Source: a virus. From it: a stretch of DNA of 64,000 nt. The translations under genes were made by a program, and so were the position numbers. The stretch is from IMG/VR virus record IMGVR_UViG_3300013006_000023, positions 43,652 through 107,651 of that record; one strand, written 5' to 3'. Numbering within the stretch: the stretch's first letter is position 1; every line of letters begins with the position of its first letter. Of this stretch, positions 35,374 through 53,244 are shown one piece after another. The notes under the pieces were generated by a model. The model searched no databases. It worked only from the letters and a program-made list of their open reading frames with translations, and was not told the origin of the DNA.

Positions 35374-38300
35374 TGGCTAATACTACCCCGCAGTTCATAA
35401 ATTATTCATATATATATTTTGATGTAAAGGATTATTCAAACAACAGAACATTATCATCCTACACACTTGAAAATACACCACTTGTCTTTATACCCAATTT
35501 AACCTCTTCTGCCTTACTTACTGCATCAGACGCCATATCAAACAAGTACGTGCAATGGAATTTCGGTGATGGAACGTTTTCAAACGATTTAACTGCAACT
35601 CATAGATACAAATGGCCAGGGATATACAAACCTATACTGACTGTTTATAACAGGCAAGGTGTACCATATGATTCAAGCTATCAACCCCTCATTGAAATCA
35701 AAGATTTTGTACCTGATGCACTTATTTTTAGAGACAGCGATAAATTCTTTCTGAATACTCTTGCTGGTAAGCTTACTGAACCTATTGATCTGTATAGATA
35801 TAATAGTTGGCAGTCATATCCTGCATTGAGCTCTGAGGGATACACCATTAATTTGTATGCTTCAGGTGCACTTGGTGAATATCTTGATTTAGATAGATAT
35901 AATAATGATAAATGGGGCCATTTAAGAAAAACTAGCAGATTTTATATTAAAAATGAATACAACGGCAATGAAGAATATACAGTTGTTGACAGTTTGTGTA
36001 CTAATAGCGTGGAGATATACACAGTCGTTGATGGTGGTATCTTAACAATATGCAGCATGGACACACCCAACAGTGTTTTTGCAGGCACTTCTGGGCAAAA
36101 GTCAATTTACTATGCAGACGATTATGTAAAAAATTTCTCAACAAGAAACGCTCCTATCTTCATATTCGCAAATTTTGATAGTTCCAAATTTAGTGACAGC
36201 TTTACTATTAAAAATGATGCTTATCGTAGCATAAGGTACATGCCTATTGGATATCAAAATCTTAAACCAGCCATATTTCCATTTACTAAAATAAGATTTA
36301 ATCCAGCTGATAAACTATCAATTTCAACAACAGGCATAGACGGGGAAGGTACACTGTCTACAACAGTATTTGATATTCCAAAATTGAGCTGGTCGAAAAC
36401 CCAAATTCCATTTGTTATAAAACTTAAAGACAATGAAAATTTTACTACCAAAACATACCAAGAGCTAGATTCGTCCACTATTCATCCAAATCTTTCCAAT
36501 GTTCAATACTTTAACCTGCAGCTTGCGTTACTGGAGCAAACTGACAACGGGGTTCGCCCCATAACTGCAGTTAAATTTTATGACGACTTTGGTTCTGATA
36601 TTCCTAAATCTATAGGCGGGTTTTATAAAGGGTATTTTGTGGCTGATACCACAAGTAACAATTGCTTTCTGAGTGCATCAATGGTTATTAGAGATGTTCC
36701 AAACATGTTTCTTGATACCATATTTGGATGGATTGCGTTGCCACAATTCAACAAATTGCAAAGGTACTTCAAACAAGAAATATATAGCTATTGCACCGGT
36801 CTATTAACATTAAATTTATCTGCGGAATCCATCAAGTACGACAGCAGGAGCAATAGAAATGTCTACTCCATACAAGTAATACCTTCAGGCTCTGACTATA
36901 CAAAAGATTTTCAAACTTGGTTTGCTGATGGCTCCAGAGATACACTATTTAAATTTGATGTGAATGGCAATATGTTATCTTCATTTAGCCTTTCCTCTTA
37001 CCCACTATCTACTACCTCTGGAATTACTTATATAGATCTAAGATCGCCACAAATAAGTAGTGCTGCCCCTGGAAGTTTGGCATTAGACGCAAGAAATGAT
37101 CTTTGGATGACACTTTTTGATAGTGTATCAGTATTAAAATTAGATTGCAATACAGGTGTTATTAAATCTGTAGCTTATCCTGCAAACAGTAACATTGTAT
37201 ATCTATTGAGCTCCGACTACAACTTGCCACAATTAAGTGGTTTTGCAGGTGAGAATTTATTCTTACCCTCCAGCGTGGATACTGACGTAGATAATAACAT
37301 TTGGGTAACATACACCCATCCAGCTTCCAACTTCCTCATAAAGTACGATACATATGGCCAGCTATTAACTACAATTCTATTTCCAAAAGTAATAAGCCCT
37401 GTGGAGGTGGTTATTGACAGAGATAATAATGCATGGTTGACTGCTTATAATTTAATTAGTGGATACAGGTTAGATCAAAGAGATGATTTTCTCTATAAAT
37501 TCAATAACAAAGGCGAATTGCTCTCAGGCTATCCAATCAAAGGGTTTAAGAATATTGGAAATCTCACAATTGATACGCTACAGAATGCCATTGTGTTTGA
37601 AAACCAACAAACCGTTACAAAAATAAACAAGAACACTTTACAAAAAACATATTTTAAAGCAGGTAGTGCCAATCAAACCACATACATAGGCAGCGCTGGG
37701 GGCATTGCATGTGACACAGGGGATTTTGTCTGGGTAATTAATAACTTTGATAAGAGATTATATTTTATTGATTCATACCAAGAGCCTGCTGATGCTTATA
37801 ATAATATGTCTTGGGTGACGCTTGAATACCCACCTGAAAGTGTGGAGAATGTATTAAGCTCTTTTCAAATGAAACAATTTCAAGCTTATGGTGATTGGTT
37901 GGGTCAAAGATGGTCAAACAAATATGCTGTAAAATCATCTCTTGAAAGAGCCATTACAGGCAGCAGTAATTCTTTTAAAATATTGCCTTATACTGGTGAG
38001 TATAATGTGTATAAAGTTAATGAAGATTTTAATGCTGAAGGGTTCTATTATTCATTAGCTTATAATGATCTGTTAAGTGAATGTAATAAATTTTTTAAAT
38101 CATTCTTGGGCACAATAGTTGGTGGTGTGACTGCTCAGCCCTATGAACTTGGAAAAACAATTTACGAAAAAATTGCTAATTTTGTTAGCAATAAAAGCGA
38201 CATTGATCTTGTCAATCTTGACTCTCTCTTGAGCATGTGCAATGAATTGTCTGTACAATTTGAACAATATAATTATCCATTTCCTCCTCAGATTGAAAGG

Positions 38301-38840
38301 CTAGTCAACTTATTATCCATTAAGCATAAAAAGCTATGGGGAGATAAAAATAAATATGACTTAAACTTTGATAATAAATTAGGTTCATATCCCATCTCCA
38401 AAGCCACCAATTTAGGCGATGAATTATCTGTACTTACAAGTGTAGTTACTGCTTATACTCCGGTAGTAGCATATGAAATATTCTCAAATACCTACACAGT
38501 TGTGAACAGAACACTCATTCCTGGTCTTAATATCAACGAGACTGCACCTCTATCAACATTTAACTACAATTGGGCATGGGGGCTGGTCTTGCCAGCAGCA
38601 GTATCTGGTGTGAAGATTAAAGATTATTATAAATTTTACAAGTATGTTGAAAAATATAATGATGGTGTGTATGATAATATCATAGATTGGAATAACCCAC
38701 ATACAACTTTAAGCTATTCTAACAGCAGCTTTAATGAATGGTCCAAGATCAATGGCATAATGGAAAATGTATTAAGCTATGAACTAACAAAAGGGCTTAG
38801 ATTGATATTAAGCGCTAGCGACCTGGTATATAACAATTAA
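35373..38840 (+). CDS. Large baseplate wedge protein with PKD and NHL-type propeller domains (gp7 position)
   Basis: A 1155-residue protein in the gp7 position (directly after gp6). A PKD domain with the WNFGDGTF signature is at residues 62-69 and its HRYKWPGIY strand follows. Residues about 565-830 hold repeats of the type LDARNDLWMTLF / VDNNIWVTYTH / DRDNNAWLTAYN, which read as an NHL or SMP30-like beta-propeller. The C-terminal 300 residues are helical and wedge-like. T4 gp7 (1032 residues) has no such propeller, so a receptor- or fibre-binding domain seems to have been inserted. AAGGAG site 5 nt before the ATG. Confidence 0.65.
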   Translation: MANTTPQFINYSYIYFDVKDYSNNRTLSSYTLENTPLVFIPNLTSSALLTASDAISNKYVQWNFGDGTFSNDLTATHRYKWPGIYKPILTVYNRQGVPYDSSYQPLIEIKDFVPDALIFRDSDKFFLNTLAGKLTEPIDLYRYNSWQSYPALSSEGYTINLYASGALGEYLDLDRYNNDKWGHLRKTSRFYIKNEYNGNEEYTVVDSLCTNSVEIYTVVDGGILTICSMDTPNSVFAGTSGQKSIYYADDYVKNFSTRNAPIFIFANFDSSKFSDSFTIKNDAYRSIRYMPIGYQNLKPAIFPFTKIRFNPADKLSISTTGIDGEGTLSTTVFDIPKLSWSKTQIPFVIKLKDNENFTTKTYQELDSSTIHPNLSNVQYFNLQLALLEQTDNGVRPITAVKFYDDFGSDIPKSIGGFYKGYFVADTTSNNCFLSASMVIRDVPNMFLDTIFGWIALPQFNKLQRYFKQEIYSYCTGLLTLNLSAESIKYDSRSNRNVYSIQVIPSGSDYTKDFQTWFADGSRDTLFKFDVNGNMLSSFSLSSYPLSTTSGITYIDLRSPQISSAAPGSLALDARNDLWMTLFDSVSVLKLDCNTGVIKSVAYPANSNIVYLLSSDYNLPQLSGFAGENLFLPSSVDTDVDNNIWVTYTHPASNFLIKYDTYGQLLTTILFPKVISPVEVVIDRDNNAWLTAYNLISGYRLDQRDDFLYKFNNKGELLSGYPIKGFKNIGNLTIDTLQNAIVFENQQTVTKINKNTLQKTYFKAGSANQTTYIGSAGGIACDTGDFVWVINNFDKRLYFIDSYQEPADAYNNMSWVTLEYPPESVENVLSSFQMKQFQAYGDWLGQRWSNKYAVKSSLERAITGSSNSFKILPYTGEYNVYKVNEDFNAEGFYYSLAYNDLLSECNKFFKSFLGTIVGGVTAQPYELGKTIYEKIANFVSNKSDIDLVNLDSLLSMCNELSVQFEQYNYPFPPQIERLVNLLSIKHKKLWGDKNKYDLNFDNKLGSYPISKATNLGDELSVLTSVVTAYTPVVAYEIFSNTYTVVNRTLIPGLNINETAPLSTFNYNWAWGLVLPAAVSGVKIKDYYKFYKYVEKYNDGVYDNIIDWNNPHTTLSYSNSSFNEWSKINGIMENVLSYELTKGLRLILSASDLVYNN

Positions 38841-38848: not shown

Positions 38849-41800
38849 ATGCCCGATAATTTTAATTATTTTGACGAAAAAATAAAAGATGTATCGATAA
38901 CGTCGACTAATCCAGTAGATAATCCTGTGGATTCAGGTGCACCCCTCACTTTTAATGAATGGTTACAGTACAATAGCAGCTTATATACAAATGCCGAAGA
39001 ATTTCTATCACGATACCAGTCTTATCTCAACAATTGGTACCAAAAAAAGAATTTATCAGTAGAAGAGCAAACCATCTCATCCAGAGATCTATACACGCAA
39101 CTCATCAGTGAAATAGTTATTAACTACAGCTCTTCAGAAGAAAAGAGATTCTTAAAGAACATTGATATTAATAATAATAGAGATTTAGCCATAGCTATCC
39201 CCTTCTTTTCAACAAAAATTAAAGAAATATGCTTATATTACAGTACTTTACGCGATGAAGTAAATTCAGCCAACATTAAATTCAATTTGAGAGGATCAGA
39301 TCTTGGATTAGAGAAATTAATTTACAATGAAGTGTCAAAAAGTCTTGAAAATGAAGACTTGGTTGACCTCATATCCACTCTTGGTTTATCATTAAGTGAG
39401 GTAAGAAACAATCTTGTGGTAGAAGTTGGTGATTTGTACGACACATACAGCAATTATCTTGATGTGAGTCCTGACAAACAGCCATCTGATTACAATTTAA
39501 CGCCAGAAGACGACAGAAGTAAATATTTTTCTTTAAACCAATATGATATTAATAGCGATGTTTTCATTAACCTAAACTCTGCAATAGTAACAGCCATCAC
39601 AGGCTATCCTTTTTATCTAATAGAGTTGGGTACTAATAATTTCTCCATCACTCCTAATGTATCACCACAAGATCTAATTTACTTGAAAGATAGTGATTTC
39701 ATTAACACTATCAATACAAATAACAAAGACAATTTAAATCTAAATCTCGATAAACTACTCACACCCAAGTTCATGGGCACAAGTTATTATTTTCTTTCAA
39801 CAGGAACAACACAAACAAATTATGTCACTGGTTTACTTTTTGATGCAAAGAACAAATTTGCAAATTATTTGAACAAAAGATATCCAACAGTTGCAGCAGT
39901 GGCAAGTGACAGCTTTTTAAAAACCGGCAAAGAAATTGGTTTGTTTTTTAAACCTGATAAACTAGGGTTAACCACTTTTGTTTCCAAAGATTTTAATGCT
40001 CAAGTAAATGCAGCTGCGTTAAGTGCCAATACACTTTATGTTTTTCCAGACCCTAGTGAATACGGCAATGTAAGCGGTCTAACAAAAGAAAATTTTAGTT
40101 CACCTTTAATCTTTAATGAAAACAACTATGATTTAAAAATTGATTTCTCCAATCAATACAGATTTGGTGAAGCTGACAGCAATCCATACTATCAAACGTT
40201 CAGAGGGTACCAAAGCAGAGAGCAAAGCCTGCAAGATGCACCTCAAGGCATATCAAGATATGTGGACAGTCAAGAGTTCTTTGCCGGTGATCTCAAGAAA
40301 GTCTGGGCAAACAAAGATACCTTCCCCTTGTTTCCTATTACCCGATACCCTCTTGATGAAAGGATAGATGCGTTAGTCTCTATCAATAAAACTTTGGTCA
40401 ACTATAAGAGCGATATATTTGGCAACGAGTATAGTGTATACAAAAATTCTCATCCAAGCAGGCTCATAGACGATTTGGTGAAGTATCTTTTGAATAGAGT
40501 TAAAGAACGCATTTATTATTGCTTGCTTGTAAATGGGCATTTTTATTATGACAGTGTTTCCGGCTTCAATTTTAACTATGCAGTACAAGATGTTGCAAAA
40601 GGATACTCTGGCATAATCTTAAAAACCACAACCAACATTCCTCCTGGTTCAGGATACTGGCTTCAAGGTGGTACATTTGCAACATCCACCTCTGCCTACA
40701 ATCAAGGGCCTCCACAGTTTTATCTCTCAGGCGCACCTACTCCATTGGCATCATACAGGTTTTTACCAGAAAAGTTTTGCCCCAGCTACATAGAAAAAGA
40801 CTTTGAATGCTTCATAGCTGATGGTGTAACATTTACTGGAAAAAATGGTGAAATATTTGATGATTATTCTTCAGACAGATCCAGCTTCAATGAAGACTCT
40901 AATGTGTATTACAATACATTGTATGATGCAGGCATGAACCCTGCAGGCCCTAGAGGCAGAGCTAATACTGTGAATCCTGGCATCTTCAACTACAACCCAC
41001 CACAATCTGCGTATTCCACTCTGGATAATTATCTGTATCTGTACAGAGGCATACCCATTTGTTCCACAGTATTTCAACTGCCTTCTTATACTGAAAATAA
41101 TAATTTCTTAAATTACAAATTACCCAATCGAGACACCAAAGCACTTACAGAAGCTTTTTCCATGAAAAAGAGAAGAAGCGTGTATGAGCTCAAGTATGTG
41201 GACTTAGGTGAAATATATTTCAGAAGCTCCAATTCTGATACTATTGCTCCTGCTTCAGCAGCATTGAGCAGCGTATTTATAAAATATGACACCTTCATTC
41301 AGAACGAAATATACAATAACTCTGTTGGATTGGATGTTTATTATGATGTGCTGCAGATTGACACAGTAAACTACACAATTTTTGATAAGCTTAAATTTAA
41401 TTATGAAACTAATCAAATAATAGGATCCACAAGAAGCGATGTATACTTTAAGGCTGGAGACAGCAATTTGGAAAAGATATCAACTGTGTGGTTCAATGAA
41501 GTGGAGAATGCATTAATAATTTGCAAGACTGTTCTGTTTCCCGAATTAAGTGCCACAAACAGCAAGATTTTATATCCAGAAATCTATAGTATTGATCTGC
41601 GCACTCTCAACTTCACCCAATTGTATCCATTTGCCAAGAGAGACAATTTAACAATGAATGATGTGGCTAGCTTCACTCTGTCCTCATTGAATGTTAACAT
41701 AGTTTCCATAGACAAACCTCTGTTAAGTTACAGCAGTGAGACTGAAACGTACAGCATTACGTATTTGGGCAGAGACATGTCAGGTGTGATGTATATTTTT

Positions 41801-41977
41801 AAAACGTATTTCAGATACATAAATGGCAAAATAGCAAACATATATTCTGGTGTTTACGATTTGAGAACCAATGCATCCAGCATTAATATAGGCGATGAGC
41901 TCACTGGTTACAGTACAGACAACATACTTGGCACAGGCAATATAAATTATGCTGATGATGCATTAATAATGGGATAA
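38849..41977 (+). CDS. Large baseplate/tail structural protein
   Basis: A 1042-residue protein. Its N-terminal 220 residues are helical (LTFNEWLQYNSSLY, YLNNWYQKKNL, AIPFFSTKIKEICLYYSTLRD) in a pattern shared by large structural proteins of marine myoviruses. The middle is Asn/Tyr-rich, and the C-terminal half is beta-rich. Located between the gp7-position protein and the fibre locus, it is likely a peripheral wedge protein that connects fibres. No enzyme motif or named family can be assigned. Confidence 0.55.
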   Translation: MPDNFNYFDEKIKDVSITSTNPVDNPVDSGAPLTFNEWLQYNSSLYTNAEEFLSRYQSYLNNWYQKKNLSVEEQTISSRDLYTQLISEIVINYSSSEEKRFLKNIDINNNRDLAIAIPFFSTKIKEICLYYSTLRDEVNSANIKFNLRGSDLGLEKLIYNEVSKSLENEDLVDLISTLGLSLSEVRNNLVVEVGDLYDTYSNYLDVSPDKQPSDYNLTPEDDRSKYFSLNQYDINSDVFINLNSAIVTAITGYPFYLIELGTNNFSITPNVSPQDLIYLKDSDFINTINTNNKDNLNLNLDKLLTPKFMGTSYYFLSTGTTQTNYVTGLLFDAKNKFANYLNKRYPTVAAVASDSFLKTGKEIGLFFKPDKLGLTTFVSKDFNAQVNAAALSANTLYVFPDPSEYGNVSGLTKENFSSPLIFNENNYDLKIDFSNQYRFGEADSNPYYQTFRGYQSREQSLQDAPQGISRYVDSQEFFAGDLKKVWANKDTFPLFPITRYPLDERIDALVSINKTLVNYKSDIFGNEYSVYKNSHPSRLIDDLVKYLLNRVKERIYYCLLVNGHFYYDSVSGFNFNYAVQDVAKGYSGIILKTTTNIPPGSGYWLQGGTFATSTSAYNQGPPQFYLSGAPTPLASYRFLPEKFCPSYIEKDFECFIADGVTFTGKNGEIFDDYSSDRSSFNEDSNVYYNTLYDAGMNPAGPRGRANTVNPGIFNYNPPQSAYSTLDNYLYLYRGIPICSTVFQLPSYTENNNFLNYKLPNRDTKALTEAFSMKKRRSVYELKYVDLGEIYFRSSNSDTIAPASAALSSVFIKYDTFIQNEIYNNSVGLDVYYDVLQIDTVNYTIFDKLKFNYETNQIIGSTRSDVYFKAGDSNLEKISTVWFNEVENALIICKTVLFPELSATNSKILYPEIYSIDLRTLNFTQLYPFAKRDNLTMNDVASFTLSSLNVNIVSIDKPLLSYSSETETYSITYLGRDMSGVMYIFKTYFRYINGKIANIYSGVYDLRTNASSINIGDELTGYSTDNILGTGNINYADDALIMG

Positions 41978-41981
41978 CAAC

Positions 41982-44900
41982 ATGAATGTACTTCCAGAAA
42001 AAATTCGTCTCAATGTAGGCCATCCTGCAAATGTATTAGCAGATTTGACTTACAATTATTCGCTTTGCGCGCCCATCTTAAGTTCAATCACTAATGTGCC
42101 GCTCCCAGGTTACATTGGCTATTATTTTAATGACGGTAATACTACGAGAAGATATGCTGCACTAATATATACTACTCAAGATCAATATATATATTCACCG
42201 ACCAGACAATTAAGCGCAAACAGATGGAATCTAATTTATGGTTTTACATCACCTATTAATAATGTTTACGATACCCACACACATACTGATCCTCAACCTA
42301 TTAATACATCTAGCCCAATTAATAATTATGTAACATTGACTGGTTGGGGATTCACAAGAAATATAACCACACTTTCAGGCAGGAAAATACACATAACTTA
42401 CAATGATTTCAATTGGTATGATATTAATACTGTGCTGGTACAGAATATCACAGGTAATTTTACACAATTCAACGGTGTTTACACATATGCGCCGGGTTCA
42501 CTATCAGGTGTATATGTAAAAGAACTTTATTTGGATCAGTATGGTGTACCATATTATGCAGCATTGACATATGTAAAAGATTTTTACTATGGAAATAATC
42601 TATGGGCTTTCGGTGAAGGGTATTTAGGTTCCTATAGTTATATATTTTCAGCTGCAAATGTTTTTCCAATATTGTCTTCATCTGCAATAGTGCCCACAAC
42701 AGGTTACAGTTATTTTTCATTTCATGGCTTAGATGTAAATCAAAGTCGATATGCTTCTTTTGCATATGATCGCATTCAGCCTACACCCACACCCACACCC
42801 ACTCAAACACCTACACAGACACCCACCAACACACAAACTCCTTCACAGACACCCACGCGTACACAGACACCTACACAGACACCCACCAACACACAAACTC
42901 CTTCACAGACACCTACCAATACGCAGACACCTTCCAATACCCCCACACAGACACCCACTCCCACCATCACCAATGTAGGTGTGCAATCTCTTTCATCACT
43001 GCCTACAACAGATCCTTCATCAAAAACATCTACTGTAGCTTTGTCAAGTTTTGTTATCAATCCAACTGATGATGACATATTTTCATTTCAATGCGCACAT
43101 TATGGCCCCACATTGAGTGGGTGTGAAGGGTTTTCACTATTTTTCATAGATACAACTCTACCACCACAACAAAGATATGATGGTGCACCATTGAGAGGCT
43201 TGGGGTACAGCAGTCTCATACTCAGAGACGCTGGATTCATAAAAGTTTATTTGGGAGTGGAGAATGGTGTGTTTGGAATTGGTTTTGATTCTTCTGGCAA
43301 TTTTGGCTTGAGTTCAGCTGGTGTATTAGGTTATGGCAAACCCATACCCAACAGTGTCACACTCAGATCATCAATAAACAATAAATTTGTTCCATTATAC
43401 AGAACAGAAGACTTATCTAATGAATATTTAGATGAACCCTTCTCCATGTATCAACAGCTAACTGGCAGCCCGCAATTCACAGATTACAGAATACGATTCT
43501 CAAATTTTGGTAAAACAATCTTTTTAGATTTTAAAAACAGAGAAATATTTAGAAACATCTTAAAATATGATTTTGCAACTGCTCTGCCTTCCATCATGCC
43601 ATCAATAGGATTCTCTGCTCTGTCTGGTTCTAAATTGGCTGTCAGAGGATTCAATTATAACGGCAATCTCATTCCATTAACACCCACACCCACCCCTTCT
43701 ATAACACCTTCACGGACACCCACTCAAACTCCAACAACTACCAGAACACCCACACCTACTAGAACACTTACACCTACACCTTCCATGACACCTTCCATAA
43801 CACCTACACCTTCCATAACACCTTCACGGACACCCACTCAAACACCCACACCCACTAGAACACCCACCCCCACTGTAACACCCACACTTCCTGACAACCG
43901 AGTATTTTATGCTGATTTTGCCAACACTTTAAGCTATCCAGGCACTGGTACCCTTGTTCAGAATTTGAAGAGTTTGTCCAATTATGCAACCTTGACTAAT
44001 GGATTTTATCCCATTACCAGTTATGGAGGTGGCATACATGTTATTTCTTCAAATGGTTTTACATTTGATTACCCGGGTTTCACTTGGAATCAATTGGGAT
44101 TGAACAACAACTTCACTGTTAACATGTGGCTGCAATTGAGCAGTTATCCACAAGAATATTTCCGATCATTGTTCAGCAGTGAAAGCTACCAGTTGAGTGG
44201 GTTCAGATGCTTTCTAGGAGGCTCTGGCTCTGGTAGCTTGCAAGGTAGACTAGTCTTTGGTAATGGTGAAAGTTTATCTTCTACAGATTCTCCAGCATTC
44301 GCTGTGCAACCGGCAACTGTGGTGCCTCTCAACACACCAGTCAATCTCACATTCACAGTGGCTCCATGTGGTGGACCTCTTGGAGTAGTGGCCAGTGTGT
44401 ACATGAATGGCATGATGGCAGCATCTGCCTCTGGCAATTTCCGATCACCATGGAACACCACAATCAGACTATTCAGCATTGGTGGCTGGAAACCAGCAGA
44501 GTGTGATTTCTTTTTAGCAGAGTATGCCACAGGAGCACAGCCTTCATGGCAAGTTAAGGACAGATACAACCAATATGCACCTCGCTTTAGACCTGCTGTT
44601 TATAATTATATTACATTTACAGGTGAAATTATTCCAATAGTAGCACCACAAACCCCTAACTATTTAATTGTATCAACAGATGTACAAACATTCAGCGCTA
44701 CTTTCGATTCACAAATACTAGGCATATCAAATAATTTCGATACTAACAATTTTACCAACTGTAACCTTACTTTTAATTACAGCGCCGGTCTATCGGCTAA
44801 TAAACAGGTTGTATATACTACACAAAACGCTACAATTTCTAGTAATTTAGGCAATTTATATACTTTGTATTACACAAATACCGGTTCAATTATATTAGGT

Positions 44901-46550
44901 TTTGCTGTCAGCAATTTAAATGTCCCGCCTATAACAAGCTACCCACCCCCTTCTCCAACCCCCACCCAGACACCTACTCAAACACCCACCCCCACCCAGA
45001 CACCTACTCAAACACCCACACCCACACCTACTCCTACAATAACACCCACTCCTTCTACCACACCGTCTTTGGCTAATAACATATGTGTGTCAGGAGCTGG
45101 AACTGAAGAGGCAAATGGAACTTATGCATATGACCCCAACTTCAATGCCAATCCCGGAAAGAAGGTTTGGTTAAGATTTCAGCCTTTAGGACCCCCCTAC
45201 AGTTACGGTGTGACTTATGACGAGGCCCAGGGTCGGTGGGTTTTAGGTGTTTACTTTGTTTTATCTTTGCAAACTACTCTTTACTCCAACTCTGCTCCCA
45301 ATTCAGTAAACCCACCGCAATCTGGATGGGTTGTTGACTCTGGGACTGTGCCTGCACCCACCATCGCTCATGCAGCATGTCCTACACCCACACCTACAGT
45401 TACACCTACAGTTACACCTACAGTTACACCAACTGTCACACCAACTCTCATACCGCCGCCCCCATCTTACCAATACTATGGCACAGGATCCAATCTCTAT
45501 GGACAATTAGGATTGGGCGACACAACTCAATTTAACACATTCACTGCATTGACTGGCAATTGGTCACAAGTTGCATGTGGTGGCAATCATACCATGGCAT
45601 TGTCAGCAGGTACTAATAACCAATGGTTTGCCGCAGGGTACAATCAATATGGTCAATTGGGATTGGGCAACAGTGGTGCAGGTACCAACAGAAACACCTT
45701 CACTGCATTGACTGGCAATTGGGCACAGATTGCATGTGGTACCTATCACACCATGGCATTAAGTGCTGGCACTAATGCATTGTTTGGCACAGGATTCAAT
45801 GTCAGTGGTCAATTGGGATTGAGCGACACAGTGCAAAGAACCACATTCACACAATTGACTGGCAATTGGTCACAGGTGGCATGTGGTAGCCAGCACACCA
45901 TGGCATTGTCAGCAGGTACTAATAACCAATGGTTTGCCGCAGGATTAAATAATGATGGTCAATTGGGATTGGGCAACAGTGGTGTAGGTACCAACAGAAC
46001 CACATTCACACAATTGACAGGCAATTGGTCGCAAATCATATGTGCTAATGGTGGCGAACACACCATGGCATTGTCAGCAGGTACTAATAACCAATGGTTT
46101 GCCGCAGGATTCAATGGCTCTGGTCAATTGGGATTGGGCAACAACACACTGAGAAACACATTCACTGCATTGACTGGCAATTGGTCACAAGTTGCATGTG
46201 GTGCCTATCACACCATGGCATTGAGTGCTGGCACTAATGCATTATTTGCCACAGGATCCAATCTCTATGGACAATTAGGATTGGGCAACAGTGGTGCAGG
46301 TACCAACAGAAACACCTTCACTGCATTGACTGGCAATTGGTCACAGATTGCATGTGGTACCTATCACACCATGGCGTTGAGTGCTGGTACTACACAGTGG
46401 TTTGCCACAGGGTACAATCTATATGGTCAATTGGGATTGGGCAACAGTGGTGCAGGTACCAACAGAACCACATTCACACAATTGACTGGTAATTGGTCAC
46501 AGGTGGCATGTGGTAGCCAGCACACCATGGCATTGAGTAGTACACTATAA
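41982..46550 (+). CDS. Giant tail-fibre adhesin: Thr-Pro stalks, LamG-like domain, seven-blade RCC1 propeller
   Basis: A 1522-residue mosaic. Residues 1-265 form a beta-rich base; Thr-Pro stalks lie at about 267-330, 567-637, 987-1028 and 1135-1160. Between them are a beta domain (330-565), a LamG/concanavalin-like domain (640-860, with FTVNMWLQLSS and VYMNGMMAA), a strand-rich domain (865-985), and a small CVSGAG-GWV module (1037-1130). Residues 1162-1522 hold seven RCC1 repeats (GQLGLG / HTMALSAGT), enough for a closed propeller. The layout is a chain of binding domains on stiff, potentially glycosylated linkers. No chaperone or autoprotease domain recognised. It starts 4 nt after the previous gene. 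Confidence 0.85.
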   Translation: MNVLPEKIRLNVGHPANVLADLTYNYSLCAPILSSITNVPLPGYIGYYFNDGNTTRRYAALIYTTQDQYIYSPTRQLSANRWNLIYGFTSPINNVYDTHTHTDPQPINTSSPINNYVTLTGWGFTRNITTLSGRKIHITYNDFNWYDINTVLVQNITGNFTQFNGVYTYAPGSLSGVYVKELYLDQYGVPYYAALTYVKDFYYGNNLWAFGEGYLGSYSYIFSAANVFPILSSSAIVPTTGYSYFSFHGLDVNQSRYASFAYDRIQPTPTPTPTQTPTQTPTNTQTPSQTPTRTQTPTQTPTNTQTPSQTPTNTQTPSNTPTQTPTPTITNVGVQSLSSLPTTDPSSKTSTVALSSFVINPTDDDIFSFQCAHYGPTLSGCEGFSLFFIDTTLPPQQRYDGAPLRGLGYSSLILRDAGFIKVYLGVENGVFGIGFDSSGNFGLSSAGVLGYGKPIPNSVTLRSSINNKFVPLYRTEDLSNEYLDEPFSMYQQLTGSPQFTDYRIRFSNFGKTIFLDFKNREIFRNILKYDFATALPSIMPSIGFSALSGSKLAVRGFNYNGNLIPLTPTPTPSITPSRTPTQTPTTTRTPTPTRTLTPTPSMTPSITPTPSITPSRTPTQTPTPTRTPTPTVTPTLPDNRVFYADFANTLSYPGTGTLVQNLKSLSNYATLTNGFYPITSYGGGIHVISSNGFTFDYPGFTWNQLGLNNNFTVNMWLQLSSYPQEYFRSLFSSESYQLSGFRCFLGGSGSGSLQGRLVFGNGESLSSTDSPAFAVQPATVVPLNTPVNLTFTVAPCGGPLGVVASVYMNGMMAASASGNFRSPWNTTIRLFSIGGWKPAECDFFLAEYATGAQPSWQVKDRYNQYAPRFRPAVYNYITFTGEIIPIVAPQTPNYLIVSTDVQTFSATFDSQILGISNNFDTNNFTNCNLTFNYSAGLSANKQVVYTTQNATISSNLGNLYTLYYTNTGSIILGFAVSNLNVPPITSYPPPSPTPTQTPTQTPTPTQTPTQTPTPTPTPTITPTPSTTPSLANNICVSGAGTEEANGTYAYDPNFNANPGKKVWLRFQPLGPPYSYGVTYDEAQGRWVLGVYFVLSLQTTLYSNSAPNSVNPPQSGWVVDSGTVPAPTIAHAACPTPTPTVTPTVTPTVTPTVTPTLIPPPPSYQYYGTGSNLYGQLGLGDTTQFNTFTALTGNWSQVACGGNHTMALSAGTNNQWFAAGYNQYGQLGLGNSGAGTNRNTFTALTGNWAQIACGTYHTMALSAGTNALFGTGFNVSGQLGLSDTVQRTTFTQLTGNWSQVACGSQHTMALSAGTNNQWFAAGLNNDGQLGLGNSGVGTNRTTFTQLTGNWSQIICANGGEHTMALSAGTNNQWFAAGFNGSGQLGLGNNTLRNTFTALTGNWSQVACGAYHTMALSAGTNALFATGSNLYGQLGLGNSGAGTNRNTFTALTGNWSQIACGTYHTMALSAGTTQWFATGYNLYGQLGLGNSGAGTNRTTFTQLTGNWSQVACGSQHTMALSSTL
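42780..42972 (+). repeat. Thr-Pro stalk 1, degenerate tandem DNA repeat
   Basis: ACACCCACnn-type repeats encode TPTQTP units; a ~60-nt block beginning near 42811 is repeated almost exactly at about 42871. The + strand is almost free of G. Confidence 0.9.
43679..43892 (+). repeat. Thr-Pro stalk 2
   Basis: Encodes [18 protein letters not shown]-type units; a block with [13 protein letters not shown] occurs twice. Confidence 0.9.
44944..45067 (+). repeat. Thr-Pro stalk 3
   Basis: Encodes [20 protein letters not shown]-type units; a CCCACCCAGACACCTACTCA block is tandemly repeated. Confidence 0.9.
45382..45456 (+). repeat. Thr-Pro stalk 4 (TPTV repeats)
   Basis: Four to five copies of a 12-nt unit (ACACCTACAGTT) encoding TPTV. 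Confidence 0.9.
45466..46548 (+). repeat. Seven tandem RCC1-repeat units, about 150 nt each
   Basis: The GQLGLG codons recur near 45500, 45651, 45807, 45957, 46121, 46269 and 46425. Long DNA blocks are nearly identical between units, e.g. units 2, 6 and 7, which points to recent duplication or gene conversion. Confidence 0.92.
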
Positions 46551-46592: not shown

Positions 46593-47864
46593 GTGAAAAA
46601 ACAGCTCAACGAAAAGATATTTATTTCCATTGCTTCATACAGAGACCCACAATTGTTGCCAACCTTAAGAGATTGTATTGCCAATGCTAAGCATCCCGAA
46701 AATTTAGTTTTTGGCATAGCTTGGCAAAGAGATGACAAGGAATCGTTGGAAGAATTTGCCAAAGACAAGAGATTCAGAGTGCTGGACATACCTTACAAAG
46801 AAAGCAAAGGCACTTGTTGGGCCAGAAGCAGCATACAAGGATTGTATAAAAACGAAAAGTATCACCTACAGCTTGACAGTCATCATCGGTTTGTCAAGGA
46901 CTGGGATGAAAAATGCATTGCCATGATCAAAGCTTTGCAAGACAAAGGCCATGAAAAGCCTTTGCTAACAGGTTATATATCCAGTTTTGATCCAGATAAT
47001 GATCCACAAGCACGCATCAATATTCCATGGAAAATGAATTTTGATAGGTTTATTCCAGAGGGTGCAGTGTTCTTTCTGCCTGCTTCAATTGATGAATACA
47101 AATCTCTCACACTGCCAGTACCAGGTCGCTTTGTATCAGCTCATTTCATCTTCACCCTGGGCCAGTGGATCAAAGAAGTGCCATATGATCCATTCTATTA
47201 CTTCCATGGTGAAGAGATAAACCTGGCTGTGAGGTCATACACCCATGGGTATGACATATTTCATCCTCATATTGTTGTGGCTTGGCATGAGTATACACGC
47301 AAAGGCAGGACCAAGCATTGGGATGATATCACTGATTGGGGTCAAATGAACACTTCATCTCATGCACGCAACCGCAAGTTGTTTGAAATGGATGGTGAAA
47401 AGAAGGACATCGATTTTGGCATATACGATTTTGGCAAGACAAGATCATTAGCAGATTATGAGAAGTATTCTGGTCTTTGCTTTAAAAAGCGTGCAGTGCA
47501 ACGTCACACTCTTGACAATCTGTATGCACCCAACCCCAATTCCACATTAACACCAGAAGAATATGACAAGTCTTTCTTAAGAATCTTCAAACATTGCATT
47601 GATGTTGGTTATGACAAAGTGCCAGAAAAAGATTATGATTTTTGGTGTGTGGCATTCAAAGATAAATCAGGCAAAGATGTGTACCGCAAAGATGCCGATC
47701 CAGAAGAAATTAAGAGAATGCTCAATGATCCCGACAAATATTGCAAAGTGTGGAGAGAGTTCAATGCAGAAGAAACACCACACAGTTGGATTGTGTGGCC
47801 ACATAGCTTATCAAAAGGCTGGGCTGAACCCATAGTAGGCTACCTGGGCAATGCTGTAAGCTAG
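46593..47864 (+). CDS. GlcNAc-type glycosyltransferase (PF11397/Skp1 GlcNAc-transferase-like)
   Basis: A 423-residue protein. The N-terminus IFISIASYRDPQLLPTLRD, then NLVFGIAWQRDD, KGTCWARSSIQGLY and HLQLDSHHRFVKDWD (DSH with the metal-binding Asp) is the clear signature of the GlcNAc family, whose founding eukaryotic member puts GlcNAc on hydroxyproline of Skp1. The C-terminal 150 residues are charged. First gene of a glycosylation cassette directly after the giant Thr-Pro fibre gene. A protein acceptor, such as the fibre stalk, is inferred; no prolyl hydroxylase is seen in the window, so Thr could be the target. Confidence 0.85.
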   Translation: MKKQLNEKIFISIASYRDPQLLPTLRDCIANAKHPENLVFGIAWQRDDKESLEEFAKDKRFRVLDIPYKESKGTCWARSSIQGLYKNEKYHLQLDSHHRFVKDWDEKCIAMIKALQDKGHEKPLLTGYISSFDPDNDPQARINIPWKMNFDRFIPEGAVFFLPASIDEYKSLTLPVPGRFVSAHFIFTLGQWIKEVPYDPFYYFHGEEINLAVRSYTHGYDIFHPHIVVAWHEYTRKGRTKHWDDITDWGQMNTSSHARNRKLFEMDGEKKDIDFGIYDFGKTRSLADYEKYSGLCFKKRAVQRHTLDNLYAPNPNSTLTPEEYDKSFLRIFKHCIDVGYDKVPEKDYDFWCVAFKDKSGKDVYRKDADPEEIKRMLNDPDKYCKVWREFNAEETPHSWIVWPHSLSKGWAEPIVGYLGNAVS

Positions 47865-47872
47865 TATAAATA
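47865..47872 (+). promoter_or_regulatory. Late promoter box, exact T4 consensus
   Basis: TATAAATA, 7 nt before the ATG at 47880; evidence that the glycosylation cassette is late. Confidence 0.58.
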
Positions 47873-47879
47873 AGTACTA

Positions 47880-48662
47880 ATGAACAAGTTTTGTTTTGCT
47901 ACAGAAGCAACATACCCCAATTACACAAAACGCATAAAAGAAAACATTCTGGGCGATTATTTGCATCTGGAGTTGGATAAAAAAAATGTGCCTTTCATAG
48001 TATCCACCAACAGGCCTGAAGATTTTGGAGAATTCAAAGATCACCCCACCATAAAAGTCTTTCATATTGACGATTTACGCAAAGATGCACCTGAATCTCT
48101 TGAATATGAATTGCTCCCTGAGAATCCTGCAGGCATTTATCCAAGCAGATACCCTTTCAACACAAGAAGATTCACATTAAAAAAAGCTGTTGAATTAGGA
48201 TGCAATTCTTGTTATTATTTTGAAGCTGATATCAAGGTTAACCGTGGATTGAATTTTACAAGTGATAGTTTTTTTAATTTCTTAAATGATATATATGCAC
48301 CCAACACTCTAACCACCAACACAACAATTTTTAGATACAAAAACTTAAAACCCGATGATGTATTTAATTTTCACGGTCAATACATTGAAAAATTTGGATA
48401 CAATTTTAAACCTGATCAATATGACACTGTTGACGGCACACTTCAATTTTACATGGGTGAAACATGTGACTCTCTATTAAACTTTTATAACACATGGAAT
48501 GACTTGGCATTATTTGGATACAGAAATGCTGTAAACGGAGGCTATGGCTACAAGAACAATGCACATGGCGTTCTTTCATTTGCCATACCAGCATCAAACT
48601 TTACCTTGAGGGAATATGGTCTCCCATTTTATGCTGATCACCATCCAGATGAAAGATACTAG
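47880..48662 (+). CDS. Putative glycosyltransferase-like protein
   Basis: A 260-residue protein with GT-A-like features: FCFATEATYPNYTKRIKEN at the start, a central SCYYFEADIKVNRGL in which EADIK could be the metal-binding acidic motif, and a conserved Tyr/Asp-rich C-terminal half (YDTVDGTLQFYMG, GYGYKNNAHG). I cannot name the family. Its place between two clear carbohydrate-modifying genes and its late box support a role in the same pathway. Confidence 0.5.
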   Translation: MNKFCFATEATYPNYTKRIKENILGDYLHLELDKKNVPFIVSTNRPEDFGEFKDHPTIKVFHIDDLRKDAPESLEYELLPENPAGIYPSRYPFNTRRFTLKKAVELGCNSCYYFEADIKVNRGLNFTSDSFFNFLNDIYAPNTLTTNTTIFRYKNLKPDDVFNFHGQYIEKFGYNFKPDQYDTVDGTLQFYMGETCDSLLNFYNTWNDLALFGYRNAVNGGYGYKNNAHGVLSFAIPASNFTLREYGLPFYADHHPDERY

Positions 48663-49318
48663 TGAAACTTTTAAGGAAAATTGTAGATAAAATTTCATTG
48701 CATAATGATTTTACCTTAGTAAGTGTGGGTGCCAACAACGGGCTATTTGTTGAAGAATTGGTTTATTTTGACATTCTTAAAAAAGATTGGAATTGCTTGT
48801 TCATAGAACCTGTGAAAGAATCTTTTGATAAATTAATTGAAAATTATAATGAACACTACCCTTTGAATAACTTTAAATATGAAAATAGTGCCATTTTTAT
48901 TGAAGATGGTACAGGAGAGCTAATTACTCATAAGAATGATGATTCGTTTGGCATGTGCTCTTTTTTTCGTCATAAAAATACTAATTCGGTGAGCATACCT
49001 GTTAATTTAAAAACATTTAAAACAATCTTAGATAAACATGAAATAAAACATGTGGATTTTTTAAAGGTTGATTGCGAGGGTTTTGATTATGAAGTTATCC
49101 TGCAACTGCTGGACATGCAAATACTTCCAAAGCTTATTTTATTTGAGGATATTATGCTTGGTGCAACTCCAAATGATGTAATTAAAGGTGTCAGAGGTAA
49201 ATCTGAATGCTTGACTGTGTTGAGGGCATTAAGATACAAAATTATTACTGATGTACCTGAAGTGGAATTTGAATCATCCAATATGTTTGCAGTGAGAAAT
49301 GATATAAATATTGAGTAA
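48662..49318 (+). CDS. FkbM-family methyltransferase
   Basis: A 218-residue SAM-dependent methyltransferase. It shows the motif I region LVSVGANNGLF, the acidic loop CLFIEPVKESFDKL, and the family signature HVDFLKVDCEGFDYEVI, as in FkbM enzymes that O-methylate sugars. The GTG start overlaps the stop of the preceding gene. In this cassette it probably methylates a sugar hydroxyl and so may cap or vary the glycan. Confidence 0.85.
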   Translation: MKLLRKIVDKISLHNDFTLVSVGANNGLFVEELVYFDILKKDWNCLFIEPVKESFDKLIENYNEHYPLNNFKYENSAIFIEDGTGELITHKNDDSFGMCSFFRHKNTNSVSIPVNLKTFKTILDKHEIKHVDFLKVDCEGFDYEVILQLLDMQILPKLILFEDIMLGATPNDVIKGVRGKSECLTVLRALRYKIITDVPEVEFESSNMFAVRNDINIE

Positions 49319-49320
49319 CC

Positions 49321-50865
49321 ATGAGCAACAAACTGGAATGTGCAGATTTATTTTCCATATGCAATGTTAGTTTTGCAGATACAGGATTTTACGTAAATCT
49401 ATGCGAATCCACAGAAAGAAAAGCTAATGTTGATGAGCAAATTAAAAAATTTCAAATAACTGGTTTAAATAGATTTGAAGCATTAAAAGATGAATTGCGT
49501 CAAAGTTCTGCAACAAAAAGCCAAAGAGCGGTTTTTGAACAAGCAATTAAAAACGGTAATGATGTTGTCTTTGTGGCAGAAGATGATTTTCACATATTGG
49601 ACACAATAACTCCTCATAATAAACCACGTATTCCCATTGAGGAACATTTATGCATGTTAAAACAAGAGTTGGATACTCTGGATTGGGATGTGTTTTTGTT
49701 TGGTTGTTGCCCGCGATCACATTTAATACCATACACACAAAATATAAGTCTTGTGCACAAAAGCACAGGAGCATGGGCTTACTTAATAAAGAACAAAGCC
49801 ATGCAATATATTTTGGATAATTTCCATTACACAAGAGATTATTTGGCCATTGATGACATTCTACCGTTGCTCAATTTCAGAGGATTCAAAACGTTTTGCG
49901 CTTCACCCATAACAATACATCATGAAGTGGGGTTTGTGTCCACACTCAATCCTCAAGGCCCTGTAAACTATGATAACATGATAAATGGATGCTATGCAAA
50001 ATACCAGAGTTACAGTGATGATAATTATTTGACAGATTATGATTTTGCACGCAACACAACCATAGTAATTGCTGGTCACTTTGCAGATAATTTTTTATTT
50101 TACTTGAGATACTTGCTTCACAGTCTGCCTGAAGCACTTAAGAAATGTAAATTTTTAATTTATTATGATCATGATCCTAGGGTTGATAACCCAGTACTCT
50201 CGTTAATACATTACTTCTACAACCGAAATGACTATCTAACACACAACATTAAGTTTGTTAAATATGGATTAATTGACATATTTAAAACAGCATTGGATGA
50301 TATAACCACACCATATTTTATTTTCTTAGAACATGATTGGGTTTTTCTTGATAAAAATAAAATTAACTTCAATTCACTGGTGAGTGCATTCAATAACAAC
50401 AATTTTGTGCATTCAGTTTATTTTAACAAGGACGATAATAACATGCGCGGTTTTGATATATGCAAAGATGCTTGTGGTGACACAACACCATTTGAGAGAG
50501 ACATCAGAGTCAGTGAGACTGATCTTGTAACAACTTGCCGCTGGTCCAACAACCCTGCAATGCATAGAACAAGCAAATTTAAAGAATGGTATGATGTGCA
50601 TTTGGCTCATGTGCATGGCAACACAGGTCATGGTCAGCATGATGTGGAAGAGAATATGATACCCATATACAGAAAAGCAATTGAAACGTCCAAATGGACA
50701 GACATCAGGGACAATTGGGGAACATTTTTATATGGTAATATTGGTGATGGTCCCTATGTTGGTCATACAGATGGCACCAGAAGATACACTACCACTGCAC
50801 GATCACAGCCAGAAATTAATGGTGATGCATATATTGAAAACAATCCTTTACCGCAGCAAGACTAA
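49321..50865 (+). CDS. Two-domain glycosyltransferase (GT25-like plus a second GT-A-like domain)
   Basis: A 514-residue protein. Residues 1-215 match GT25 (LPS-type) transferases: FYVNLCESTERKANVDEQI, a KSQRAVFEQAI helix, and VVFVAEDDFHIL with the EDD motif, then WDVFLFGCCP and GAWAYLIKNKA. Residues 225-514 open with TIVIAGHFADNFLFYLRYLL and have YFIFLEHDWVFLD (second acidic metal motif) and a His/Asp-rich region (HGNTGHGQHDVEEN). The fusion could add two successive sugars. Two bases separate it from the FkbM gene. Confidence 0.75.
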   Translation: MSNKLECADLFSICNVSFADTGFYVNLCESTERKANVDEQIKKFQITGLNRFEALKDELRQSSATKSQRAVFEQAIKNGNDVVFVAEDDFHILDTITPHNKPRIPIEEHLCMLKQELDTLDWDVFLFGCCPRSHLIPYTQNISLVHKSTGAWAYLIKNKAMQYILDNFHYTRDYLAIDDILPLLNFRGFKTFCASPITIHHEVGFVSTLNPQGPVNYDNMINGCYAKYQSYSDDNYLTDYDFARNTTIVIAGHFADNFLFYLRYLLHSLPEALKKCKFLIYYDHDPRVDNPVLSLIHYFYNRNDYLTHNIKFVKYGLIDIFKTALDDITTPYFIFLEHDWVFLDKNKINFNSLVSAFNNNNFVHSVYFNKDDNNMRGFDICKDACGDTTPFERDIRVSETDLVTTCRWSNNPAMHRTSKFKEWYDVHLAHVHGNTGHGQHDVEENMIPIYRKAIETSKWTDIRDNWGTFLYGNIGDGPYVGHTDGTRRYTTTARSQPEINGDAYIENNPLPQQD

Positions 50866-50889
50866 TAGTTGATATTGAAATAAAAATAT

Positions 50890-50897
50890 ATAAAATA
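50890..50897 (+). promoter_or_regulatory. Degenerate late promoter box
   Basis: ATAAAATA, 4 nt before the ATG at 50902. Confidence 0.3.
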
Positions 50898-50901
50898 TTT
50901 T

Positions 50902-53244
50902 ATGTCCTTTTGCACAGCGGATAGGCTTTTATCAAGACCCAACAAGAGCGTTGATGCCAGCATCATTTCACACGAACAGATCAAGCACCTCATTACATTT
51001 CTTGAACAAGCGGTTACAGAGAACATAGAAGGTGATGTGGTTGAATTTGGTTGTTATGTGGGCGAATCATCCAAATATCTGAGAATGATGCTTGATGAGC
51101 TCAAGAGCAATAAAGAATTGCATGTGTATGATTCTTTTGAAGGATTGCCTCAATTGAGTGAACATGAAAAAAACACTGCATGGAGACCAGGCACTCTCAA
51201 ATCAACTGTTGAAATTCTGGAACAAAATTTTGAACAAAACGGTCTCAAGAAACCTGTTATCACAAAAGGGTGGTTTAAAGATGTTGCAGATGCTGACATC
51301 CCATCCAAAATATCATTTGCATTTCTTGATGGTGATTTTTATGAATCAATATATGATTCTCTTCAAAAAATTTATGACAGAGTTAGCGATGGCGGTTTCA
51401 TTGTATTTCATGATTACAAAAGACCTGACCTGCCTGGAGTAGAAAAAGCTGCATGGGATTTCTTTTATACCAAAAATGTATTTCCTAACATAACTGTTGT
51501 ATGTGAGCAGCTTGGTGTGTATCGCAAGAATGCCACAGTGAAAGTCATCACTGAAACTCCCAAATATGAAAATCCAATCACACTGGTCACAGGCATCTGG
51601 GATCTGGGCAGAGGGCAACTCACTGAAGGATGGTCTCGTAATTATTCGCACTACCTAGATAATTTCAACAAACTACTCCAAGTTGAAAACAATTTAATTA
51701 TTTTTGGTGACAAAGAACTCAGAGATATAGTTTACAAAGTTAGAAGCGATAAAAATACACAATTCATTGAGAGACCCTTGGAATGGTTTAAGGATAACCA
51801 ATATTATCCGTTGATACAGAAGCTCAGAACCGATCCAAATTGGTTCAATCTGGCAGGCTGGCTCACGGAATCAACACAGGCAAAGCTGGACATGTACAAT
51901 CCCTTGGTAATGTCCAAGATGTTCATGCTTAATGATGCTAAAATCATGGACAAGTTTGATTCTAAGTTCTTATTCTGGCTGGATGGTGGCATAACCAACA
52001 CTGTGCATCCTGGATACTTCACTCATGACAAGGTGTTCAATAACCTGGAGAAGTACATCACCAAATTTTCTTTCATCTGTTTTCCGTATGAGGCCAATAA
52101 TGAGATTCATGGCTTCAAGTTTGATGAAATCAATAAACTAGCAGGCACCACAGTGAAGAAAGTTGCAAGGGGTGGATTGTTTGGTGGACCCAAGGACAGC
52201 ATTTCTGATATTAACACAATATATTACAATCTTCTCATGGGCACTCTTGACTCAGGTCTAATGGGCACAGAAGAATCCATATTTAGCATCATAACATACA
52301 AATATGGAGACAAGGTTAACTATTTTGAGATTAATTCAGATGGTTTGTTAGGTACATTTTTTGAAAACTTAAAAAATAATAACATAACAGTGCTAAGTGA
52401 GAGCAACAATGCAACGTCCTCCATTGTGCTGAATACAAACAACACAGGCTTGTATGTCATAACGTTCAATTCGCCCAACCAGTTCAAAACATTAATACAT
52501 AGCATGAATTTATATGACAAAGAGTTCATACTCAAACCTAAAAAATATTTGCTTGATAATTCTACTGATGCCTCAACATTTGATCAGTATAAAAAGCTAT
52601 GTGAAGAACATAATTTTACGCACATTAAAAAAGACAACCTGGGCATATGTGGCGGTCGACAGTTCATTGCTGAACATGCTGAGTCTGAAAACTTAGATTT
52701 TTACTTCTTCTTTGAGGATGATATGTTTTTTTACCTTGGCCAAGAAAACACATGCAAGAACGGATTCAACAGACGAGTTGAGAACCTATACGCAAATTCA
52801 CTAAAAATTATTAATGAAAATAACTTTGATTTCCTTAAGCTATCTTTCACAGAGTTTTATGGTGATAATAAAACACAATGGTCATGGTACAATGTGCCAC
52901 AAGCCAAACGTGATGAATATTGGCCAGATTACAACAAGCTGCCACAAATGGGCCTGGATCCCAATGCTCCCAAGACTGTATACCACCACATTGGTTGTGC
53001 CAACAACATACCTTTTGCAAGTGGTGAAGTGTATTACTGCAATTGGCCACAAGTTGTTTCTCGTTCTGGCAATAGAAAGATGTTCATTGACGTGAAATGG
53101 GCCAACCCGTATGAGCAAACCTGGATGTCATACATGTATCAACTCACAAAAGAAAAGGATTTGAACTCAGGCATTTTGCTCATATCGCCCATTGAACACA
53201 ACAGATTTGAATACTATGAAGGTTCACTGCGCAGAGAGAATTAA
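50902..53244 (+). CDS. Three-domain carbohydrate-modifying enzyme: TylF methyltransferase, HtrL/YibB-like, GT-A
   Basis: A 780-residue fusion. Residues 1-215 are a TylF/MycF-type O-methyltransferase (GDVVEFGCYVGESSKYL for SAM; FAFLDGDFYESIYDSL with metal Asp residues; FHDYKRPDLPGVEKA). Residues about 220-470 resemble the HtrL/YibB family (TLVTGIWDLGRG, WLTESTQAKLDMYNPLVMSK, FLFWLDGGI), likely a sugar transferase. Residues 490-780 are a third transferase-like domain (VITFNSPNQFKTLI, DFYFFFEDDMFFYLG with EDD, GEVYYCNWPQ). A single polypeptide with methyl- and glycosyl-transfer halves suggests stepwise building of one glycan. Confidence 0.75.
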   Translation: MSFCTADRLLSRPNKSVDASIISHEQIKHLITFLEQAVTENIEGDVVEFGCYVGESSKYLRMMLDELKSNKELHVYDSFEGLPQLSEHEKNTAWRPGTLKSTVEILEQNFEQNGLKKPVITKGWFKDVADADIPSKISFAFLDGDFYESIYDSLQKIYDRVSDGGFIVFHDYKRPDLPGVEKAAWDFFYTKNVFPNITVVCEQLGVYRKNATVKVITETPKYENPITLVTGIWDLGRGQLTEGWSRNYSHYLDNFNKLLQVENNLIIFGDKELRDIVYKVRSDKNTQFIERPLEWFKDNQYYPLIQKLRTDPNWFNLAGWLTESTQAKLDMYNPLVMSKMFMLNDAKIMDKFDSKFLFWLDGGITNTVHPGYFTHDKVFNNLEKYITKFSFICFPYEANNEIHGFKFDEINKLAGTTVKKVARGGLFGGPKDSISDINTIYYNLLMGTLDSGLMGTEESIFSIITYKYGDKVNYFEINSDGLLGTFFENLKNNNITVLSESNNATSSIVLNTNNTGLYVITFNSPNQFKTLIHSMNLYDKEFILKPKKYLLDNSTDASTFDQYKKLCEEHNFTHIKKDNLGICGGRQFIAEHAESENLDFYFFFEDDMFFYLGQENTCKNGFNRRVENLYANSLKIINENNFDFLKLSFTEFYGDNKTQWSWYNVPQAKRDEYWPDYNKLPQMGLDPNAPKTVYHHIGCANNIPFASGEVYYCNWPQVVSRSGNRKMFIDVKWANPYEQTWMSYMYQLTKEKDLNSGILLISPIEHNRFEYYEGSLRREN

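What the first reader, a model, noticed from the sequence alone, without database searches (positions are those of the whole stretch)
45466..46548. Near-identical RCC1 units form a seven-blade receptor-binding propeller
Seven units of about 150 nt with almost identical DNA blocks make a full propeller at the fibre C-terminus. RCC1 propellers are mostly eukaryotic or bacterial surface proteins. High DNA identity allows recombination that could swap the variable loops between blades and change host range.
Basis: partly seen in the sequence, partly recalled or inferred. Interest (0 to 1): 0.65.

Follow-up and report, generated by a model that had tools for sequence, protein, structure and literature searches.

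The report
Seven-blade RCC1 tip on phage fibre
An uncultured T4-like phage carries a long, linker-rich fibre protein ending in a seven-bladed RCC1 propeller whose blades have exchanged DNA with each other, probably varying a surface used to grip its bacterial host; RCC1 propellers in phage particles are already known, but I found no description of this exchange between blades in them.

Summary
ORF 41982-46550 (1522 aa) ends in exactly seven RCC1 units (147-165 nt). AlphaFold gives a confident 28-strand, seven-blade propeller (pLDDT 94) matching UVR8, HERC1, RPGR and RCC1. 'Near-identical' is overstated: mean pairwise DNA identity is 80% (72-89%), but sub-blocks are 97-100% identical. The units are mosaics (blade 7 = 5' part of blade 2 + 3' part of blade 3), with a significant recombination signal. 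Blades cluster by phage, not by position. Blade number is seven in all ten or so complete relatives, so unit number is fixed. Amino-acid variation concentrates on one face. The gene lies beside T4-like baseplate wedge genes and also carries an L-type-lectin-like domain found in 38 other viral contigs, never with RCC1 attached. In four relatives of the same clade the same RCC1 subfamily sits in unrelated carrier proteins, so the propeller is a swappable module. Receptor binding is well supported by inference but untested; host-range change by blade recombination remains a hypothesis. RCC1 virion proteins, RCC1-bearing tail fibres and recently amplified RCC1 propellers are all known. A new variant of a known kind, moderate interest.

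The parts
41982..46550 (+). fibre-like adhesin gene, 1522 aa, four Pro/Thr-rich linkers between globular domains, RCC1 propeller at the C-terminus
   Evidence: ORF; linker repeats; Pfam RCC1; downstream of gp25-like and gp6-like baseplate wedge genes
41982..42779 (+). N-terminal domain of unknown fold; by search found only in the same virus (a short weak match in L015)
42783..42961 (+). Pro/Thr-rich linker 1
   Evidence: TRF rows
42993..43691 (+). domain D2: L-type (legume/ERGIC-53) lectin-like fold, conserved at the same locus in relatives
   Evidence: AlphaFold pLDDT 84; Foldseek top 50 hits are L-type lectins or carbohydrate-binding domains, E 8e-6 to 6e-5; 38 other viral contigs encode it
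43686..43887 (+). Pro/Thr-rich linker 2; a contig of the same virus from another sample ends here
43893..44591 (+). domain D3, no relative found; looks LamG/ConA-like by eye only
   Evidence: no match outside the window; no Pfam hit
44592..44933 (+). domain D4, no relative found
44949..45064 (+). Pro/Thr-rich linker 3
45081..45386 (+). domain D5, no relative found
45381..45442 (+). Pro/Thr-rich linker 4
45477..45626 (+). RCC1 blade unit 1
45627..45782 (+). RCC1 blade unit 2
45783..45932 (+). RCC1 blade unit 3
45933..46097 (+). RCC1 blade unit 4
46098..46244 (+). RCC1 blade unit 5
46245..46400 (+). RCC1 blade unit 6; mosaic of blade 1 (codons 3-14, 36/36 nt) and blade 2 (codons 14-47, 93/96 nt)
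46401..46547 (+). RCC1 blade unit 7; mosaic of blade 2 (codons 1-22, 64/66 nt) and blade 3 (codons 22-47, 71/72 nt)

Best explanation
The propeller is the adhesive C-terminal module of a baseplate-proximal, multi-domain fibre protein of an uncultured T4-like phage. Globular binding domains, at least one of them L-type-lectin-like, are strung on Pro/Thr linkers and the seven-blade RCC1 ring is the distal tip. The blades are kept alike by homologous recombination between them (gene conversion or unequal crossing-over), while the fold holds the count at seven. Loops on one face vary most, so that face is the likely contact surface for a bacterial surface ligand, probably a glycan or protein. Shown here: gene, seven units, confident fold model, mosaic blades, fixed blade number, concentration of variation, shuffling of the module between carriers. 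Inferred: presence in the virion, receptor binding, which face binds, and any effect on host range.
For: Fold: AlphaFold pLDDT 94, pTM 0.91, 28 strands = 7 x 4; Foldseek to UVR8, HERC1/2, RPGR and RCC1 with E about 1e-23 to 1e-26. Location: after gp25-like and gp6-like baseplate wedge genes and two large conserved proteins. Lectin-like domain D2 in the same polypeptide. Recombination: PHI-type test k=2 p=0.0002, k=3 p=0.0008, significant in five of seven arrays tested; mosaic blades 6 and 7. Nearest neighbour of a blade is in the same array for 37 of 45 units against 4.9 expected, maximum 16 in 5000 shuffles. Entropy of face I loops / face II loops / strands 1.67 / 0.61 / 0.79 bits over 45 units; dN/dS among this protein's blades 1.01 / 0.34 / 0.35. 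Seven blades in every complete relative. Same RCC1 subfamily (54-65% aa identity) in unrelated carriers of relatives G020, G009, G004, G016, while D2 is not fused to RCC1 in any of 35 other complete ORFs. A relative with 86% DNA identity over 13 kb loses similarity at about 42005, in the first codons of this gene, as is typical of host-range genes. The record encodes a RecA-type recombinase. Precedent: T7-type tail fibre N-domain (below the Pfam cut-off, E 6e-5) fused to RCC1 in Pseudomonas phage Ppr_SeaP4, and an RCC1-bearing tail protein in phage Littlefix.
Against: No direct evidence of virion incorporation or binding for this protein, and no known fibre anchor or trimerisation domain was recognised. 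Face I vs face II within this protein alone is borderline (p=0.06); the dN/dS interval for face I is wide (0.46-2.77) and compatible with relaxed constraint. Two arrays (L074, first ring of L020) give no recombination signal. The array in the window rests on one metagenome assembly: the other contig of the same virus, L014, ends at 43703, so an assembly chimera inside the array cannot be excluded.
Confidence: 0.68

Rival explanations
1. The propeller is a protein-protein docking or structural element of the tail (for instance binding another fibre subunit) and not the receptor-binding tip.
For: Solved RCC1 propellers are mainly protein-binding platforms (RCC1-Ran, RPGR-RPGRIP1, UVR8-COP1; entries listed). 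The D-A loop on face II is nearly invariant, which could be a conserved contact or simply a folding need. In relative G009 the ring is at the N-terminus of its protein, not at the tip.
Against: The ring is moved between unrelated carriers, the D2 locus occurs without it in 35 complete ORFs, and one face is variable between blades and between phages, unusual for an obligate internal contact.
Confidence: 0.18
2. The similarity among blades reflects only a recent amplification from a single blade followed by divergence, with no later exchange between blades.
For: Pereira and Lupas 2022 (PMC9218822) show repeated amplification from single blades in most propeller families, including RCC1/BLIP-II and a few viral members, and close relatives that amplified independently.
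Against: A tree-like amplification does not give blades whose two halves match different partners at 97-100%, nor incompatibilities that depend on distance. Amplification may still have come first.
Confidence: 0.12
3. The protein condenses or organises phage DNA inside the capsid, as database names and two papers suggest for phage RCC1 proteins.
For: PHROG files the families under DNA metabolism; PMC7247149 and PMC11370258 propose a DNA-packing role for virion RCC1 proteins.
Against: Those proposals rest on the family name. Here the ring is fused to lectin-like and Pro/Thr-linked domains next to baseplate genes, an extracellular adhesin layout.
Confidence: 0.04
4. The seven-unit array or its mosaic blades are artefacts of metagenome assembly of a repeat.
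For: A contig of the same virus from another sample ends inside the linker repeats of this gene; repeats 97-100% identical over about 70 nt can mislead short-read assembly.
Against: Seven blades is the number the fold needs and recurs in all complete relatives; one relative's array is present at 99.8-99.9% identity in four separate contigs; mosaic signals recur in other contigs.
Confidence: 0.06

Closest known systems
RCC1/BLIP-II family of beta-propellers (PF00415, PF25390; RCC1, UVR8, HERC1/2, RPGR)
   Same: Repeat motif, seven blades of four strands, fold
   Different: Blades are much more alike in DNA and protein than is usual for the eukaryotic members; carried by a phage fibre-like protein
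Phage virion RCC1 proteins (PHROGs 4219, 7220, 16766; GAP32, phAPEC6, W70, S-SRM01, LIBA6276)
   Same: RCC1 rings in structural-gene regions; GAP32 and W70 members found in virions by mass spectrometry
   Different: Many are stand-alone ring genes, often several per genome; here the ring is the end of a 1522-aa multi-domain protein with a lectin-like domain; identity to isolated phages is only about 27-36%
Tail fibre proteins carrying RCC1 (Pseudomonas phages Ppr_SeaP4, Littlefix)
   Same: RCC1 domain in the distal part of a tail fibre or tail protein
   Different: T7-like or Schitoviridae context; weak sequence similarity (E 0.4-0.6)
Recently amplified beta-propellers (Pereira and Lupas 2022, PMC9218822)
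   Same: Propellers with blades over 60% identical, including RCC1/BLIP-II and a few viral cases
   Different: That study stresses amplification from single blades and, in some families, variable blade numbers; here the number is fixed and exchange between existing blades is visible

Membership tests
RCC1-like seven-bladed propeller | RCC1 repeats scoring over the curated cut-off | tested here: met
   PF00415 143 bits vs 21.7; PF25390 188 bits vs 150
RCC1-like seven-bladed propeller | seven blades of four antiparallel strands closing a ring | tested here: met
   AlphaFold 28 strands, pLDDT 94; TM about 0.8 to solved RCC1 folds over the whole length
Phage receptor-binding protein / tail fibre | gene position in the tail/baseplate module | tested here: met
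   downstream of gp25-like and gp6-like wedge genes; similar order in relatives
Phage receptor-binding protein / tail fibre | a recognised fibre anchor or trimerisation domain | tested here: not met
   no Pfam or PHROG fibre domain; hence 'fibre-like', not filed as a named fibre family
Phage receptor-binding protein / tail fibre | carbohydrate- or protein-binding domains | tested here: met
   lectin-like fold prediction for D2; TM moderate, 0.43-0.56
Phage receptor-binding protein / tail fibre | binds the host surface | not testable with these tools
   needs experiment
Phage receptor-binding protein / tail fibre | part of the virion | not testable with these tools
   uncultured; only remote RCC1 relatives were seen in virions by mass spectrometry
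Diversity-generating retroelement target | reverse transcriptase nearby | tested here: not met
   no PF00078 match in the 107,651-base record, which may be incomplete
Recently amplified propeller | blades over 60% pairwise identical at protein level | tested here: met
   63-87%, mean 75%

The most novel reading that the evidence does not exclude
Recombination between the blades, perhaps by the phage's own RecA-type recombinase, acts as a reverse-transcriptase-free way to reshuffle the variable loops on one face of a receptor-binding ring while the fold holds the blade number at seven, giving the phage population many versions of its adhesin.
Probability: 0.25. Interest if true: 0.65.

Novelty: new variant of a known kind. 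Interest (0 to 1): 0.45.

Why it matters
If true it joins two things so far kept apart: continual homogenisation of propeller blades, and variation of phage host-recognition proteins. A closed ring with a fixed blade number can exchange loops between blades without changing length, a simple route to adhesin diversity that long reads can test directly. It also suggests that phage proteins named 'regulator of chromosome condensation' are surface adhesins rather than DNA-packing proteins.

Tried and rejected
A single-sequence search of IMG/VR with the propeller found one weak relative because its patterns fell in repeats; DNA-motif patterns and an alignment query worked better. A scan of 84,980 bacterial and archaeal genomes with the subfamily alignment found no confirmed relative, so no bacterial donor was identified; that scan is limited by its patterns. 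A diversity-generating retroelement was considered and not supported. psbA is absent from this and three related records, so that gene gives no support for a cyanobacterial host. Literature searches with the word RCC1 are swamped by Roscoff culture numbers. Variability could not be mapped on atomic coordinates because the model's coordinates are not exposed; faces were assigned from strand order.

Full report
What is there. The window is bases 43652-107651 of a 107,651-base IMG/VR virus record. Its terminase is T4-like, 31-38% identical to gp17 of cyanophages and rhizobiophages, and the structural genes are of the T4 type. ORF 41982-46550 encodes 1522 aa with four Pro/Thr-rich linkers and a C-terminal RCC1 region. 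Seven units of 147-165 nt run from 45477 to 46547. Whole-unit identity is on average 80% in DNA and 75% in protein, lower than 'near-identical', but defined blocks are 97-100% identical.

Fold. With an alignment of 16 viral propellers AlphaFold gives pLDDT 94, pTM 0.91 and 28 strands, that is seven blades of four. Foldseek matches solved RCC1-type propellers over the full length and phage and giant-virus RCC1 proteins in BFVD.

Exchange between blades. Among 23 informative two-state sites, neighbouring sites are far more compatible than distant ones (PHI-type test, k=2, p=0.0002). The mosaics are visible by eye: blade 7 matches blade 2 over codons 1-22 (64/66 nt) and blade 3 over codons 22-47 (71/72 nt), but blade 3 only 41/66 in the first part; blade 6 matches blade 1 at 36/36 nt over codons 3-14 and blade 2 at 93/96 over codons 14-47. 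Silent differences travel with the blocks, so convergent selection on the protein is not enough to explain them. The signal recurs in the arrays of L023, L028, L122 and the second ring of L020, not in L074 or the first ring of L020. Unequal crossing-over and gene conversion cannot be told apart here. Across eight arrays, 37 of 45 units have their nearest neighbour in the same array against 4.9 expected: blades evolve in concert within a phage. The record encodes a RecA-type recombinase at the left edge of the window and has no reverse transcriptase match.

Fixed number. Every complete ring of the subfamily has seven blades: this one, G001 (two rings), G004, G008, G009, G016 (same array in four contigs), G017, G020 and L200. 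PF00415 match counts in several other viral records are 7, 14, 21 or 28.

Where the variation is. Strand order within a unit in the model is C (columns 1-4), D (22-27), A (32-37), B (43-48). Because neighbouring strands of a blade are antiparallel, the C-D loop (5-21) and the A-B loop (38-42) lie on one face (face I) and the D-A and B-C loops on the other (face II); this is deduced from topology, not measured on coordinates. Mean entropy is 0.68 / 0.26 / 0.35 bits for face I, face II and strands among the seven blades (I vs II p=0.06), and 1.67 / 0.61 / 0.79 over 45 units of eight arrays (p=0.015). dN/dS among the seven blades is 1.01, 0.34 and 0.35 (face I vs rest p=0.03; 95% interval for face I 0.46-2.77); pooled within arrays it is 0.50, 0.19 and 0.26. 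This shows concentration of change and weaker constraint on one face; it does not prove positive selection.

Surroundings and modularity. Upstream lie gp25-like and gp6-like baseplate wedge proteins and two large conserved proteins; downstream, glycosyltransferase and methyltransferase genes. Relatives of the same clade are G020 (terminase 85%), G009 (72%), G004 (70%) and G016 (65%). All carry the same RCC1 subfamily, but in carriers of 1417, 600, 537 and 709 aa that share only the ring with this protein. Conversely, domain D2 of this protein is conserved at the first fibre locus of relatives (35-38% identity in G020 and G009) and in 38 other contigs, none of whose 35 complete ORFs (some from the same virus) contains RCC1. 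AlphaFold and Foldseek give D2 an L-type-lectin-like fold. A strain with 86% DNA identity over 13 kb diverges abruptly at about 42005, within the first codons of this gene. Together these make a modular, rapidly exchanged adhesin the best reading.

Known context. RCC1 proteins occur in many phages, in virions of W70 and GAP32 by mass spectrometry (PMC11370258, PMC5259590), and as eleven copies in phAPEC6 (PMC7247149), where a DNA-packing role was suggested from the name. Fusion to a T7-type tail fibre N-domain in Ppr_SeaP4 (weak match) favours an adhesin role. Recently amplified propellers, including RCC1/BLIP-II ones and a few viral ones, are described in PMC9218822.

Verdict. Receptor binding and host-range effects are inference. 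The array rests on one metagenome assembly, the main technical caveat.

Noticed in passing
53279-54433 and 54437-55810: A second linker-rich fibre gene begins an RCC1-like blade (FGINSSGELGIG) and is ended by an in-frame TAA at 54431-54433; one codon later, in the same frame, an ATG ORF of 457 aa carries weak RCC1-like motifs (PHROG 7220 E=0.004, hhalign probability 12.6). It may be a decayed or split second propeller.
   Followed up: partly
46593-53244: A block of glycosyltransferase-like and methyltransferase genes (PF11397, PF05050, PF05711, PF09612) sits between the two fibre genes; relatives G020 and G004 have a similar block starting with a homologous gene.
   Followed up: partly
42993-43691: L-type-lectin-like domain found at the fibre locus of 38 other uncultured phage contigs with varied C-terminal partners; no Pfam family covers it.
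   Followed up: yes
38849-41977: A 1042-aa protein conserved through the uncultured clade has no match in 50,697 phage records.
   Followed up: partly
61001-62140, 62485-62988, 63017-64000: Further proteins with long Pro/Thr-rich repeats, probably more linker-bearing surface proteins.
   Followed up: no
35373-38840: Baseplate-region protein of 1155 aa with a PKD domain near its N-terminus.
   Followed up: no
L199 (G001), ORF of 1811 aa: One protein carries two complete seven-blade RCC1 rings separated by a stretch of short repeats of the type TYGTVSALSAAWQ.
   Followed up: partly
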